Below the pieces are notes generated by a model. It had not been told where the DNA came from and did not search any database. It was given only the letters and a program-made list of their open reading frames with translations. A stretch of 64,000 bases of DNA from positions 2,294,001 through 2,358,000 of the forward strand of contig NZ_CP042430.1 in NCBI RefSeq assembly GCF_007970665.1, given 5' to 3'. Shown here piece after piece: positions 11,308 through 24,984 of the stretch (position 1 is its first letter; every line of letters begins with the position of its first letter). The DNA is from Baekduia soli (GTDB lineage: Bacteria; Actinomycetota; Thermoleophilia; Solirubrobacterales; Solirubrobacteraceae). A program made the position numbers and the translations under genes.

Positions 11308-11393
<86 letters not shown>

Positions 11394-12515: not shown

Positions 12516-12644
12516 CCCGCGGTCCCTCGCCGGCCGGGCGCGGCCTGCGGTGTGCCGGTCGGCGTCGTCTCGACGCCGGCTGCCGCACGCCGCAGGCGGC
12601 GGCTCCGGCGCTGTACGGCGGGGCGCCTGGGCGGTAGCCTGGAA

Positions 12645-12976
12645 GGGCACGCCGGACGGCTGCGGCGGGGGAGACAACCCGTCGAGGAAAGTCCGGACAC
12701 CACAGGGCATGGTGGTCGGCGCAAGCCGACCCGGGGAAACCCGCGGGAAAGTGCCACAGAGACATACCGCCGATGGCGGGGGCGCACGTGCACCCCGCAC
12801 AGGCAAGGGTGAAAAGGTGCGGTAAGAGCGCACCGGCGTCACGGCGACGTGGCGGCCAGGCAAACCCCACCAGGTGCAAGGCCAAGCAGGACCGCTCGCA
12901 GGCTGCCCGCCGAGGTCCAGGTCGGCCGCTCAGATGGATGGTCGTCCACGACAAGATCCGGCTTACAGGCGTGCTA
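12645..12976 (+). ncRNA. rnpB: RNase P RNA (M1-type, class A)
   Basis: Catalytic RNA that trims tRNA 5' leaders. Conserved regions are plain: GAGGAAAGTCCGGAC with CACAGGGCA, the GTGCCACAGAGA region, AGGGTGAAAAGGTGCGG followed by TAAGAGCGCACC, and near the 3' end AGATCCGGCTTACAGG. The terminal helix P1 is formed by GCACGCC (12647-12653) and GGCGTGC (12968-12974), which fixes the ends to within a few bases. The length of about 330 nt is somewhat short but complete. Followed at once by a strong hairpin. Confidence 0.96.
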
Positions 12977-12978
12977 CG

Positions 12979-13006
12979 GCGAGGGCCCTCCACGGAGGGC
13001 CCTCGC
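12979..13006 (+). terminator. rnpB terminator hairpin
   Basis: GCGAGGGCCCTC (12979-12990) and GAGGGCCCTCGC (12995-13006) form a perfect 12-bp stem with a CACG tetraloop, two bases after the RNase P RNA end. A T-tract is missing, as in the other hairpins of this genome. Confidence 0.85.
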
Positions 13007-22679: not shown

Positions 22680-23177
22680 GTGATCGGGACCATCGTCTTC
22701 GTCATCGTCTTCGTCGCGATCGGGCTCTCCGTGGTCCTGGCCGCGATGCGCAGCGGTCGCAAGCCGTCCGCGGCGGGCTCGGAACCCCGCGCCGTCCGCC
22801 GGGCCTGGCTTGCCGGGATCGCGGTGGTCACCCTGGTCCTCGGCGTCGGCGTCCCCGCCCTGGTGCTCGTCAACAACGGCGACAACCACGCCAAGCACGG
22901 GCCCGGCGGCGTCGACCTGACCGCGGCCCAGGCCACGGGCCGCTCGCTCTTCGTCAAGAACTGCTCGACCTGCCACACGCTGGACGGGGCGAAGGCCACG
23001 GGCCGTGTCGGGCCGAACCTCGACACGCTCAACGGCGGCAACCTGACGTCGGCGTTCGTCATGGACGCGATCGTCAACGGCCGCGCCCGCGGCGCCGGCC
23101 AGATGCCCGCCAACCTGCTGCAGGGCCAGGACGCCAAGGACGTGGCGTCCTTCGTGTCCGCCGTCGCCGGCCGCTAG
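22680..23177 (+). CDS. Membrane-anchored mono-heme cytochrome c
   Basis: 165 residues. Two N-terminal hydrophobic segments (IGTIVFVIVFVAIGLSVVLA and AGIAVVTLVLGVGVPALVLV) anchor the protein. The C-terminal class I cytochrome c domain has the heme motif CSTCH, GRVGPNLD, and a likely Met axial ligand in GAGQMPANLL. Probably an electron carrier on the outer face of the membrane between quinol- and oxygen-reactive complexes. GTG 22680 lies 7 nt after a TAGGGT box. Not part of a visible oxidase cluster. Confidence 0.92.
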   Translation: MIGTIVFVIVFVAIGLSVVLAAMRSGRKPSAAGSEPRAVRRAWLAGIAVVTLVLGVGVPALVLVNNGDNHAKHGPGGVDLTAAQATGRSLFVKNCSTCHTLDGAKATGRVGPNLDTLNGGNLTSAFVMDAIVNGRARGAGQMPANLLQGQDAKDVASFVSAVAGR

Positions 23178-23397
23178 CCCGTCCGCGCGGGCAGGCTGTC
23201 AAGCCCTCCCAGACGTCCGGCCGGGCGCCTCCCGCGGTGGTGTCCGCGAGGAAGTCAAGGGTGCACCGGGCGGGAAAACCCCGCACGTTGCGGCAAGGTT
23301 CCGTCCGACCCATCGCTGATCATGTGGTCAGTTGCTCGTTGCCATAACTCCGCCACCTAGCAGGGATTTTCGACGTTGCTACGATGCCGCCGATCAC
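23178..23397 (+). other. Intergenic region with weak hairpins and riboswitch promoter
   Basis: No gene seen. It holds two small hairpin-forming stretches, around 23230-23251 (GCGG/CCGC core) and GCGGG-AAAAC-CCCGC at 23270-23284, which may end the cytochrome c transcript. TACGAT at 23380-23385 is a plausible -10 for the riboswitch RNA, putting the transcript start near 23392. I see no clear -35. Confidence 0.45.
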
Positions 23398-23534
23398 TAC
23401 CGCTGAATCTCCGGCCGGCAGGTCCGGCACGGGGAGCGGGGGACCCACCATGCACCGGGGCGAATCGCATCCCGCGTAGCGCCGCTCTTTCGGCGCGAGC
23501 CCGTCAGCTAACCCCGCAAGCCCATTGAAAGAGG
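23398..23534 (+). promoter_or_regulatory. c-di-AMP riboswitch (ydaO/yuaA type)
   Basis: The conserved ydaO-class elements occur in order: CGCTGAATC at 23401, GGGGAGCGGGGGACCCACC, GGGGCGAATCGC, the GCGTAGCGCCGC hairpin with a CTTTCGG loop, then CCGTCAGCTAACCCCGCAAGC and the terminal GAAAGAGG. These match the well-known pseudo-symmetric c-di-AMP aptamer. In Actinobacteria this class usually controls cell-wall hydrolases or osmotic genes and normally turns expression off when c-di-AMP is high. Here it lies about 15 nt before the start of an unknown membrane protein. The final GAAAGAGGA also serves as ribosome binding site, so control of translation is plausible. Confidence 0.85.
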
Positions 23535-23548
23535 ACCGGAACCCACCG

Positions 23549-24217
23549 ATGCCATCGACGGACGCGCCCAACTGGTGGGCCGACGTGCAACAGGAGCGCG
23601 AGGACCTCACCGGCCGCGGTCGGCGGCCCGCCGAGGACTGGCTGGGTGAGGACATCGACTTCGTCCCGCGCCGTCGCATCTCGGGCAGCCGCGGCGGGAC
23701 GCGCCGCGACCACGCCGCATCGGCGAGCCACCCGCTGCACGGCGTGTTCATCCCGGCAGCCGATCCGCGGGCCACGGGCCGCACCGTCTCCCTGACGACG
23801 GGCACGACGACGATCGAGCTCGTCACCGAGGCCGACATGCCCGTCACCCGGCGCGATGACGGCACCGACGCCGGCGTCGCCCACGAGCTCCGCCACCTCA
23901 GCGCGGCCGACGACCCGTTCGCCAGCCCGCCCCCGCCCGCCGGCGCCCGGCGCACCGTCCAGATCAAGGGCCGTCCCGGTGAAGGCGCCGTGCGCTCTCT
24001 GGCCCAGCGCCACCGCCCGCGCACGGCGTCGGACCGCGTGGGCCACCGTCCCGACCGCATCGCGCTGTGGGCCGTCGTGCTCGGCGCGATCCTCATCCTG
24101 CTGGCGGCGGCCAGCTCGTCGCGCGCCGCGGTGCCCCACCGCGCCGCCACGCCGCACGTCGCCATCGCGCACGTCGGGGCCCCCGCGGCCTTCGCCGCGC
24201 CCCACAGCATCCGCTAG
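23549..24217 (+). CDS. Uncharacterised single-span membrane protein under c-di-AMP riboswitch control
   Basis: 222 residues from ATG 23549, preceded by GAGGA at the end of the riboswitch. An earlier TTG at 23525 lies inside the aptamer and is unlikely. The N-terminal ~165 residues are hydrophilic and charged, with no domain I recognise. One transmembrane helix follows (RIALWAVVLGAILILLAAAS) near residue 180, and then a short Ala/His-rich tail (HRAATPHVAIAHVGAP) that would lie outside. The topology suggests a long cytoplasmic part. Regulation by c-di-AMP points to osmotic, potassium or cell-wall homeostasis, but the biochemical role is unknown. Confidence 0.82.
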   Translation: MPSTDAPNWWADVQQEREDLTGRGRRPAEDWLGEDIDFVPRRRISGSRGGTRRDHAASASHPLHGVFIPAADPRATGRTVSLTTGTTTIELVTEADMPVTRRDDGTDAGVAHELRHLSAADDPFASPPPPAGARRTVQIKGRPGEGAVRSLAQRHRPRTASDRVGHRPDRIALWAVVLGAILILLAAASSSRAAVPHRAATPHVAIAHVGAPAAFAAPHSIR

Positions 24218-24320
24218 CCCGGCCGCCCCGCGCGCCGCCGGGCCACCCTCCGCGCGCCCAGCTGCGCCCTCGCCGCGATCCCGCGCGCGCCACGGCCGCG
24301 TACCCCCGGCGTGGCGAGCG

Positions 24321-24352
24321 TTGACACGCTTCCTACACTTACCTCGGGTAAG
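24321..24352 (+). promoter_or_regulatory. Promoter and inverted-repeat operator before the AhpD-like gene
   Basis: TTGACA at 24321-24326 is a consensus -35. CTTACC-TCG-GGTAAG at 24338-24352 is a perfect 6-bp inverted repeat with a 3-bp centre, overlapping where the -10 should lie. It is a good candidate site for the HxlR-type regulator encoded two genes downstream. The rest of 24218-24420 shows nothing else. Confidence 0.6.
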
Positions 24353-24420
24353 GAACCTCCCGGTGGCATCGCCGGCACGGAACGCCGGCGCTCCTCATCC
24401 CTCTCCCCAGGACGCCTGCC

Positions 24421-24984
24421 ATGAAGACGCGGTTCAGCCGGTTCCCGGTCCACGACGACCTCTCCGCACCGGAGGCGTCGGTACCGATCCTCAAGGGCGC
24501 GATGGCCTCGGCGGGCCAGCTCCCGAACTTCCTCGGCGTCCTGGCGGGCTCGGCCCCCGCGCTGCGCGGCTACACCCGCTTCCGCGGTGAGCTGCGCCAC
24601 GGCGCGCTGCCGGTGCCGTCGCTCGAGCGCATCGCCCTGGCCGTCGCCGAGCACTTCGACTCCGAGCCCGGGCTGGCCCTGCACCAGCGCACGGCCCGCC
24701 AGGCGGGCCTGGGTGTCGACGAGATCGCCCTCGCGCGCGAGTGGGACTCCCACGACGAGCACCAGGCCCGGCTGCTGCGCTACCTCAAGGTGCTCGTCGC
24801 CGAGCAGAACCGCCCGCCGCTGCACCTGCACGAGGAGGCCCGCGAGTCCGGGTGGACCGACGAGCAGCTGCTGGAGGCCATCGCCTACGCCTCGCTGGAG
24901 AGCTTCACCGCGATGGTCAACGTCGCCGGCGACATCCCCGTCGACGGCTCCTTCGAGGATGCCCGCCAGCTGCACGCCGCCTGA
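24421..24984 (+). CDS. AhpD/carboxymuconolactone-decarboxylase-like protein lacking cysteines
   Basis: 187 residues with the all-helical AhpD-like layout: PILKGAMASAGQLPNFLGVL, FRGELRHGALPVPSLERIAL, AVAEHFDSEPGLALHQRTAR. Peroxidatic members carry Glu-x-x-Cys-x-x-Cys-x-x-x-His in the third of these blocks. Here both Cys positions are replaced (EHFDSEPGLALH) while Glu and His remain, and I find no Cys in the protein. Thiol peroxidase activity is therefore unlikely. It could be a decarboxylase-like or non-redox member. Transcribed from the TTGACA promoter with the CTTACC repeat and followed by an HxlR regulator. Confidence 0.8.
   Translation: MKTRFSRFPVHDDLSAPEASVPILKGAMASAGQLPNFLGVLAGSAPALRGYTRFRGELRHGALPVPSLERIALAVAEHFDSEPGLALHQRTARQAGLGVDEIALAREWDSHDEHQARLLRYLKVLVAEQNRPPLHLHEEARESGWTDEQLLEAIAYASLESFTAMVNVAGDIPVDGSFEDARQLHAA

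What the first reader, a model, noticed from the sequence alone, without database searches (positions are those of the whole stretch)
23398..24217. c-di-AMP riboswitch controlling an unknown single-span membrane protein
The full set of ydaO-class aptamer motifs lies immediately before a 222-aa protein of no known family with one transmembrane helix near its C-terminus. Known: this aptamer controls cell-wall hydrolases and K+/osmolyte genes. Here it points to a new member of the c-di-AMP regulon. The aptamer end doubles as the ribosome binding site.
Basis: partly seen in the sequence, partly recalled or inferred. Interest (0 to 1): 0.72.

Follow-up and report, generated by a model that had tools for sequence, protein, structure and literature searches.

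The report
Wall-enzyme leader that lost its enzyme
A real c-di-AMP-sensing RNA switch sits in front of a small membrane protein that looks like the inside-facing front half of a cell-wall enzyme: some related bacteria still carry the enzyme at the same spot, while this one and most of its relatives have the switch, the inner part and the membrane anchor without it.

Summary
The aptamer is real: RF00379 at 23391-23538 (+), 71.5 bits against a cut-off of 38. A 222-aa ORF (23549-24217) starts 10 nt later. The protein has one transmembrane helix (about 171-189) and no Pfam, NCBIfam or PDB-sequence match. It is not an unrelated newcomer. Its core (RRTVxIxGR...RPDRIAxWAVLLG) was found in 140 of 232 genomes of one order, mostly upstream of glnA (127 of 139 loci). 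At 19 of these loci, one in the window's own genus, an RlpA-type domain follows. Elsewhere, as here, the protein stops at or soon after the helix. The RlpA domains of this locus group together (support 92/94), which fits one old cargo lost repeatedly. In the window's genus, leader and helix are constrained (pN/pS 0.00-0.51) while the tail drifts (1.07). The aptamer loop CUCUUUC is complementary to the ribosome-binding site GAAAGAG, and no terminator was found, so translational OFF control is likely. The riboswitch is present at 110 of 132 evaluable loci. Best reading: a c-di-AMP-repressed membrane protein left over from a wall enzyme, probably a cytoplasm-facing adaptor (inferred).

The parts
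23391..23538 (+). c-di-AMP (ydaO/yuaA) riboswitch aptamer, RF00379
   Evidence: 71.5 bits, cut-off 38, full model 1-134
23485..23491 (+). loop CUCUUUC of the GCGC hairpin, complementary to the Shine-Dalgarno sequence (anti-SD side of the pseudoknot)
   Evidence: read in the sequence and in the Rfam alignment; best loop-tail helix of 6 or more contiguous pairs in 96 of 110 orthologous aptamers
23527..23535 (+). GAAAGAGGA: 3' strand of the pseudoknot and likely Shine-Dalgarno sequence
   Evidence: sequence; lies inside the Rfam match; no intrinsic-terminator-like site in 23100-24450; SD role by eye
23549..24217 (+). 222-aa leader-plus-helix protein (P0001), stop codon included
   Evidence: ORF; start shared with close orthologues; orthologues at the same locus across the order
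23555..23617 (+). N-terminal helix, residues 3-23, WWADVQ..RE motif
   Evidence: AlphaFold helix 3-23, block means of pLDDT 70 and 81 for residues 1-20; residues 1-20 pN/pS 0.00 within the genus
23948..23974 (+). RRTVQIKGR motif, residues 134-142, predicted cytoplasmic side
   Evidence: T invariant and R, R, I, G nearly invariant in 22 aligned cores; motif by regular expression in 88 of 112 short forms
24047..24058 (+). RPDR, residues 167-170, directly before the helix
   Evidence: R, D, R invariant and P nearly invariant in 22 aligned cores
24059..24115 (+). transmembrane helix, residues 171-189
   Evidence: mean hydropathy 2.6 over 19 residues, net charge +5 in the 25 residues before it; AlphaFold helix 170-192
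24116..24214 (+). post-helix tail of 33 residues; its last 28 residues evolve without detectable constraint; stands where long forms carry the enzyme
   Evidence: residues 195-222: pN/pS 1.07, 45% identity among three genomes of the genus

Best explanation
The gene descends from a c-di-AMP-repressed wall enzyme: cytoplasmic leader, signal-anchor helix, peptidoglycan-binding domain, RlpA-type DPBB domain. In the window's lineage, and repeatedly elsewhere in the order, the exported enzyme part was lost, while the riboswitch, the conserved parts of the cytoplasmic leader and the helix were kept. When c-di-AMP is high, the aptamer folds and its loop CUCUUUC pairs with GAAAGAG, hiding the ribosome-binding site so that translation is off; when c-di-AMP is low, the protein is made. 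The product sits in the membrane with its N-terminus inside. It most likely works as a cytoplasm-facing adaptor that couples the growth or division machinery to wall remodelling through the N-terminal WWADVQ helix and the RRTVxIxGR motif. Shown by computation: the aptamer, the loop-SD complementarity, orthology by synteny, the enzyme-bearing orthologues, and constraint on leader and helix but not on the tail. Inferred: ligand response, OFF direction, topology, direction of evolution (loss), and the adaptor role.
For: Aptamer. No terminator-like site in 23100-24450, so control is more likely translational. Loop-tail helix of 6 or more contiguous pairs in 96 of 110 aptamers (93 with the partner in the first stretch of the tail); mean score 16.1 against 15.3 (SD 0.16, maximum 15.8) when partners are swapped 200 times. 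The same translational mechanism was proposed for C. glutamicum nlpC from reporter data (PMC9960051, passages seen). Own genome: a diadenylate cyclase domain, 8 over-threshold riboswitches plus 1 weak one; 6 of the other 7 strong ones precede wall-enzyme-like or wall-binding genes. One locus: window GlnA matched downstream at 127 of 139 and the cytochrome-c-like protein upstream at 114 of 139. 13 of 14 long proteins given to Pfam carry PF01471 and PF03330. The 19 DPBB domains of this locus form one side of a branch against 22 other RlpA domains, support 92/94. On a GlnA tree the long G002 is sister to the short G006, G001 and window (SH-aLRT 89). The riboswitch is present at 19 of 19 long and 88 of 109 evaluable short loci, so it was lost only where the enzyme is gone. 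pN/pS in the window's genus: N-terminus 0.00, linker 0.51, motif region 0.37, PDR+helix 0.20, tail 1.07; in eight long forms of another genus the part after the helix is 0.19.
Against: No experiment. 22 of 132 evaluable orthologues have no riboswitch. The loop-SD helix is under 6 pairs in 14 of 110 aptamers, and the partner-swap excess is small and ignores relatedness. The ligand-free minimum-energy fold also pairs CUCUUUC with GAAAGAG and is no more stable than shuffles (z 0.5), so it does not show a switch. GAAAGAGGA ends 13 nt before the ATG, long for an SD. Loss rather than gain rests on a 98-column domain tree whose bootstrap had not settled; GlnA parsimony alone needs 7 changes, with the direction open. 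The DPBB comparison set was partial (loci were given for 30 of 43 places). 24 of 112 short forms lack the RRTV motif by my regular expression, and so do most long forms (3 of 20 have it), so it is not needed everywhere. A disordered adaptor is hard to tell from a slowly decaying remnant.
Confidence: 0.62

Rival explanations
1. The short protein is a decaying pseudogene-like remnant of the RlpA enzyme; it is still translated but no longer does anything.
For: The enzyme part is absent; the tail of the window's protein evolves neutrally; no Pfam domain; most of the model has low confidence; 21 of 109 evaluable short loci have lost the riboswitch against 0 of 19 long ones, and the motif is missing in 24 of 112 short forms.
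Against: Leader and helix are constrained in all five short-form genera tested (pN/pS 0.00-0.61 for leader parts, 0.03-0.44 for PDR+helix). The core and the synteny persist across the order. 88 of 109 evaluable short loci keep the riboswitch. The window's reading frame is intact.
Confidence: 0.18
2. The short form is ancestral; RlpA domains were captured behind the leader several times.
For: Short forms are the majority (112 of 131 classified; 102 of 118 rows). Long forms are scattered on the GlnA tree (7 changes at least). One family-f3 genome (G085) has a different sequence after the helix, so cargo can change.
Against: The DPBB domains of families f1 and f3 at this locus group together, apart from the other RlpAs sampled. 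The domain order is the same in the 13 Pfam-positive long forms. Of the 7 family-f3 loci, 4 are RlpA-bearing, 1 (G079) runs off its contig, 1 (G085) has another tail and 1 (G078) is short; three more f3 genomes match a long protein over most of its length, 2 of 15 f3 genomes do not match at all (locus not checked).
Confidence: 0.2
3. The riboswitch acts by transcription termination or processing, as in B. subtilis, and the SD overlap is incidental.
For: B. subtilis ydaO works by termination (stated in PMC9960051). The pseudoknot is part of the aptamer in general, as in the crystallised ydaO RNA (PMC5393176, passages).
Against: No terminator-like site in 23100-24450. The aptamer match ends only 10 nt before the ATG.
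Confidence: 0.15

Closest known systems
ydaO/yuaA c-di-AMP riboswitch (RF00379), especially the translational C. glutamicum nlpC switch (PMC9960051, passages seen)
   Same: Full aptamer above threshold; loop complementary to the likely RBS; no terminator found.
   Different: Here the complementary stretch is CUCUUUC/GAAAGAG rather than CTCC/GGAG, and the gene product has no enzyme domain.
RlpA-type DPBB proteins with peptidoglycan-binding domain (PF03330 + PF01471)
   Same: Orthologues at the same locus with the same kind of leader and helix carry these domains (13 of 14 long forms scanned).
   Different: The window protein has neither domain; only 203 bp separate its stop from the next ORF start at 24421.
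FtsN-like bitopic division proteins (recalled, not tested)
   Same: N-in, C-out single-span layout with a basic stretch before the helix (layout predicted here).
   Different: No sequence relation was tested; SPOR domain not found by Pfam in the window protein.

Membership tests
c-di-AMP riboswitch RF00379 | covariance-model score over the curated threshold across the full model | tested here: met
   71.5 bits against 38, model 1-134
c-di-AMP riboswitch RF00379 | pseudoknot between hairpin loop and 3' tail | tested here: met
   as complementarity only: CUCUUUC 23485-23491 with GAAAGAG 23527-23533, 7 pairs; 96 of 110 orthologous aptamers have 6 or more contiguous pairs
c-di-AMP riboswitch RF00379 | binds c-di-AMP and switches expression | not testable with these tools
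   needs in-line probing or a reporter; a diadenylate cyclase domain is encoded in the genome
RlpA-type wall enzyme (PF03330) | DPBB domain | tested here: not met
   0 Pfam families for P0001 at E up to 10
RlpA-type wall enzyme (PF03330) | same locus and same leader/helix as enzyme-bearing orthologues (orthology, not domain content) | tested here: met
   synteny, shared core, long form in the window's own genus (G002)
Leader-helix family of this order (defined here) | RRTVxIxGR...RPDR core before one helix, cytochrome-c-like gene and glnA as flanks, one copy per genome | tested here: met
   outside the order only weak hits: 3 of the 10 matching genomes, 0 of 29. One of 38 named loci is titled Pseudonocardiales (L262), but it has the same flanking genes and may be misnamed

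The most novel reading that the evidence does not exclude
An export leader became a protein in its own right: after a riboswitch-controlled wall enzyme lost its exported domains several times independently, selection kept the cytoplasmic leader and the anchor as a free-standing, c-di-AMP-tuned adaptor of the wall machinery. This would mean that the leaders of the remaining enzyme-bearing forms already carry a second, cytoplasmic function.
Probability: 0.4. Interest if true: 0.76.

Novelty: new variant of a known kind. Interest (0 to 1): 0.58.

Why it matters
c-di-AMP riboswitches in Actinobacteria are thought to control almost only wall-related genes (statement in PMC9960051, passage seen). 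This locus shows what looks like a wall-enzyme target whose regulation and inner half survive without the enzyme, across much of an order. It makes a clear question testable: do the long cytoplasmic leaders of wall enzymes carry a function of their own? It also gives an unnamed, syntenic protein family a likely origin and a candidate signal input.

Tried and rejected
Considered and dropped: a completely new regulon member unrelated to wall enzymes (enzyme-bearing orthologues at the same locus). A split gene with the enzyme next door: the next genes read by eye as carboxymuconolactone-decarboxylase-like, HxlR-like and glutamine synthetase; no family search was run on them. Fission into the other RlpA genes of the window's genome: their two DPBB domains fall with the other RlpAs, not with this locus. 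Missed weak riboswitches at the 22 loci without one: the filters-off search gave nothing convincing (best 12.1 bits, L171, on the wrong strand). Single-strand folding of the leader RNA was uninformative (z 0.5). No promoter-like site was found by the simple scan. AlphaFold gave two confident helices for the window protein (pTM 0.25) and a poor model for the long form (mean pLDDT 54), so no fold search was run. Of the paper searches (listings only, except the passages of PMC9960051 and PMC5393176), none listed a description of this locus that I recognised; c-di-AMP riboswitch with RlpA gave 0 papers. Three papers asked for by DOI or PMC id, among them two primary ydaO papers as I recall them, are not held, so an earlier listing of such hypothetical genes cannot be excluded. 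Rows dropped: L253 (chance hit in a transporter-like ORF) from the riboswitch count, with 6 loci cut by a contig end; L227, L252, L253, L174, L190, L218 and L222 from the counts, and L244 as well; L227 and L244 were labelled long by hand for the GlnA tree; 12 of 139 loci had no GlnA match and further short GlnA pieces were left out of that tree. Two genomes of the window's genus, G003 and G004 (68% and 65% complete), had no match.

Full report
Observation. The RF00379 match is over threshold and full length: window 23391-23538 (+), 71.5 bits against 38. The ORF starts at ATG 23549, 10 nt after the match, and ends at 24217. The protein has one transmembrane helix (residues about 171-189) and no match in Pfam or NCBIfam (E up to 10) or PDB sequences (E up to 1).

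Regulon of the host. The window lies in a single-contig genome of 5.21 Mb. That genome has 8 RF00379 matches over the cut-off and a ninth below it (27.4 bits), and one diadenylate cyclase domain. The other 7 strong riboswitches precede (Pfam): two proteins with weak NlpC/P60 matches below the Pfam cut-off (L001; L005, which also has peptidoglycan-binding domains), one protein with peptidoglycan-binding domains (L003, whose C-terminus resembles those two by eye only), one Rpf-type transglycosylase with a peptidoglycan-binding domain (L006), one M23 peptidase in a frame other than that of the proximal start (L007), one RlpA-type protein (L008) and one alginate-lyase-like protein (L004). The weak ninth lies upstream of a second RlpA-type gene. 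So wall enzymes are the usual targets here.

Relatives. tblastn with the protein matched 34 of 61 genomes, own included, best in a core near the C-terminus. Of 29 relatives' loci examined with Rfam, 26 carry RF00379 next to the match; one of the other three is cut by a contig end. A profile of the core (A2, 22 sequences) matched 140 of 232 genomes of the order, one copy each apart from one genome with two pieces; one of the 140 (G191) is a chance hit in a transporter-like ORF. In an even sample of the phylum it matched 10 of 296, of which the 3 outside the order are weak. In an even sample of the class it matched 29 of 199, all in the order. The genome collection gave 38 loci, among them Conexibacter arvalis (L257) and Svornostia abyssi (L289). 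One record is titled Pseudonocardiales (L262), but it has the same flanking genes and an aptamer-like motif just upstream, so it may be misnamed.

One locus. I fetched the 139 hits other than the window with flanks where the contig allowed. The window's glutamine synthetase has a downstream match at 127 of 139 and its cytochrome-c-like protein an upstream match at 114 of 139, for long and short forms of family f1 alike; the family-f3 loci have GlnA but show no cytochrome-c match, and one locus with a riboswitch (G176) shows none of the neighbours. This is strong evidence of orthology. The names of the flanking genes are by eye.

Long and short forms. At some of these loci the helix is followed by enzyme domains. 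Of 14 distinct long proteins given to Pfam, 13 have PF01471 and PF03330, and the one from G085 has no match; four short ones given in the same run have none. By eye the G085 tail resembles a transglycosylase; that is recalled, not tested. A profile of the C-terminal domain found it at 19 of the 139 loci. In one search, 19 long and 112 short forms were classified; 87 of the 112 short forms end within 12 residues of the helix window. The window's own genus contains a long form (G002, 468 aa) and short forms (window, G001, G005, G006); G003 and G004 had no match. The window's form and G005 end at different points (33 residues after the helix against at the helix), as expected from separate truncations.

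Direction of change. On a GlnA tree (118 rows, 16 long) the label needs at least 7 changes, of which starred branches force 3; G002 is sister to G006, G001 and the window (SH-aLRT 89, not starred). In a tree of DPBB domains, the 19 from this locus are one side of a branch against 22 other RlpA domains (support 92/94, 85% of 200 bootstrap trees). The others are those of the fetched loci (30 of 43 places) less duplicates, plus one. This favours one old enzyme cargo and repeated loss, but the alignment has 98 columns and the bootstrap had not settled. In families f3 and f1 the picture is mixed: of 7 f3 loci, 4 bear RlpA, 1 runs off its contig, 1 has another tail, 1 is short.

What selection keeps. 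Pooled pN/pS (Nei-Gojobori proportions, uncorrected) for the three short forms of the window's genus: N-terminal 20 residues 0.00, linker 0.51, motif region 0.37, PDR plus helix 0.20, post-helix tail (residues 195-222) 1.07. In four other short-form genera, PDR plus helix is 0.03-0.44, the motif region 0.22-0.36 and the N-terminus 0.10-0.50. In eight long forms of one genus the part after the helix is 0.19. So leader and helix are constrained in short forms, while the tail that stands in for the enzyme in the window's genus is not. The RRTV motif is present by regular expression in 88 of 112 short forms and 3 of 20 long ones (the expression may miss some, as in G022, where the chosen start cuts the motif). 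AlphaFold predicts only an N-terminal helix (3-23) and the membrane helix; the rest is low confidence.

The switch. The riboswitch is present at 110 of 132 evaluable loci (139 less 6 cut by a contig end and 1 chance hit). By form, it is at 19 of 19 long and 88 of 109 evaluable short loci (relatedness not removed), so it was lost only where the enzyme is gone. The 22 losses stand with filters off. The hairpin loop CUCUUUC (23485-23491) is complementary to GAAAGAG (23527-23533), which is also the likely Shine-Dalgarno sequence. In 96 of 110 orthologous aptamers the best loop-tail helix has 6 or more contiguous pairs. The mean pairing score is 16.1 against 15.3 (SD 0.16, maximum 15.8) for 200 sets with swapped partners; relatedness is not removed, and most sequences share one consensus (loop CUCUUUC in 83, tail GAAAGAG in 66 of 110). 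No terminator-like site lies between 23100 and 24450. For the C. glutamicum nlpC switch, reporters point to translation, and a loop-RBS pseudoknot was proposed (PMC9960051, passages seen). The pseudoknot itself is part of the known ydaO fold (PMC5393176, passages seen). So the mechanism is a known kind, applied here.

Verdict. The finding is real. Its interpretation needs one change: the protein is most likely the surviving inner half of a riboswitch-controlled wall enzyme, not a stranger in the regulon. Its adaptor role is my inference, and a decaying remnant remains a serious rival.

Noticed in passing
window 12644-12981 (+): RNase P RNA, class A (192.3 bits); in two relatives of other families it lies within about 1 kb upstream of this riboswitch (L033, L041).
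   Followed up: no
window 11308-11393 (-): A tRNA gene (48.8 bits).
   Followed up: no
L007 (own genome 4488110-4491282): The riboswitch-proximal ORF and the M23 peptidase domain downstream lie in different frames: a frameshift or an assembly error.
   Followed up: no
L249 (G085) 2095-2634: Same kind of leader and helix, but a different tail that resembles a transglycosylase by eye; no Pfam match. Possible cargo exchange.
   Followed up: partly
L190, L205, L206, L213, L231, L234, L240, L241 (genus g14): Eight orthologues of one genus show no riboswitch by R1 (rechecked with filters off), while a ninth (G176, L159) has one but showed none of the window's neighbour genes.
   Followed up: partly
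L006 (own genome 127093-130260): The riboswitch-controlled Rpf-type transglycosylase also starts with a long basic stretch before its hydrophobic segment; long leaders may be common in this regulon.
   Followed up: no
L262: Contig of a MAG titled Pseudonocardiales that carries the same locus with the window's flanking genes; probably misnamed or mis-binned.
   Followed up: partly
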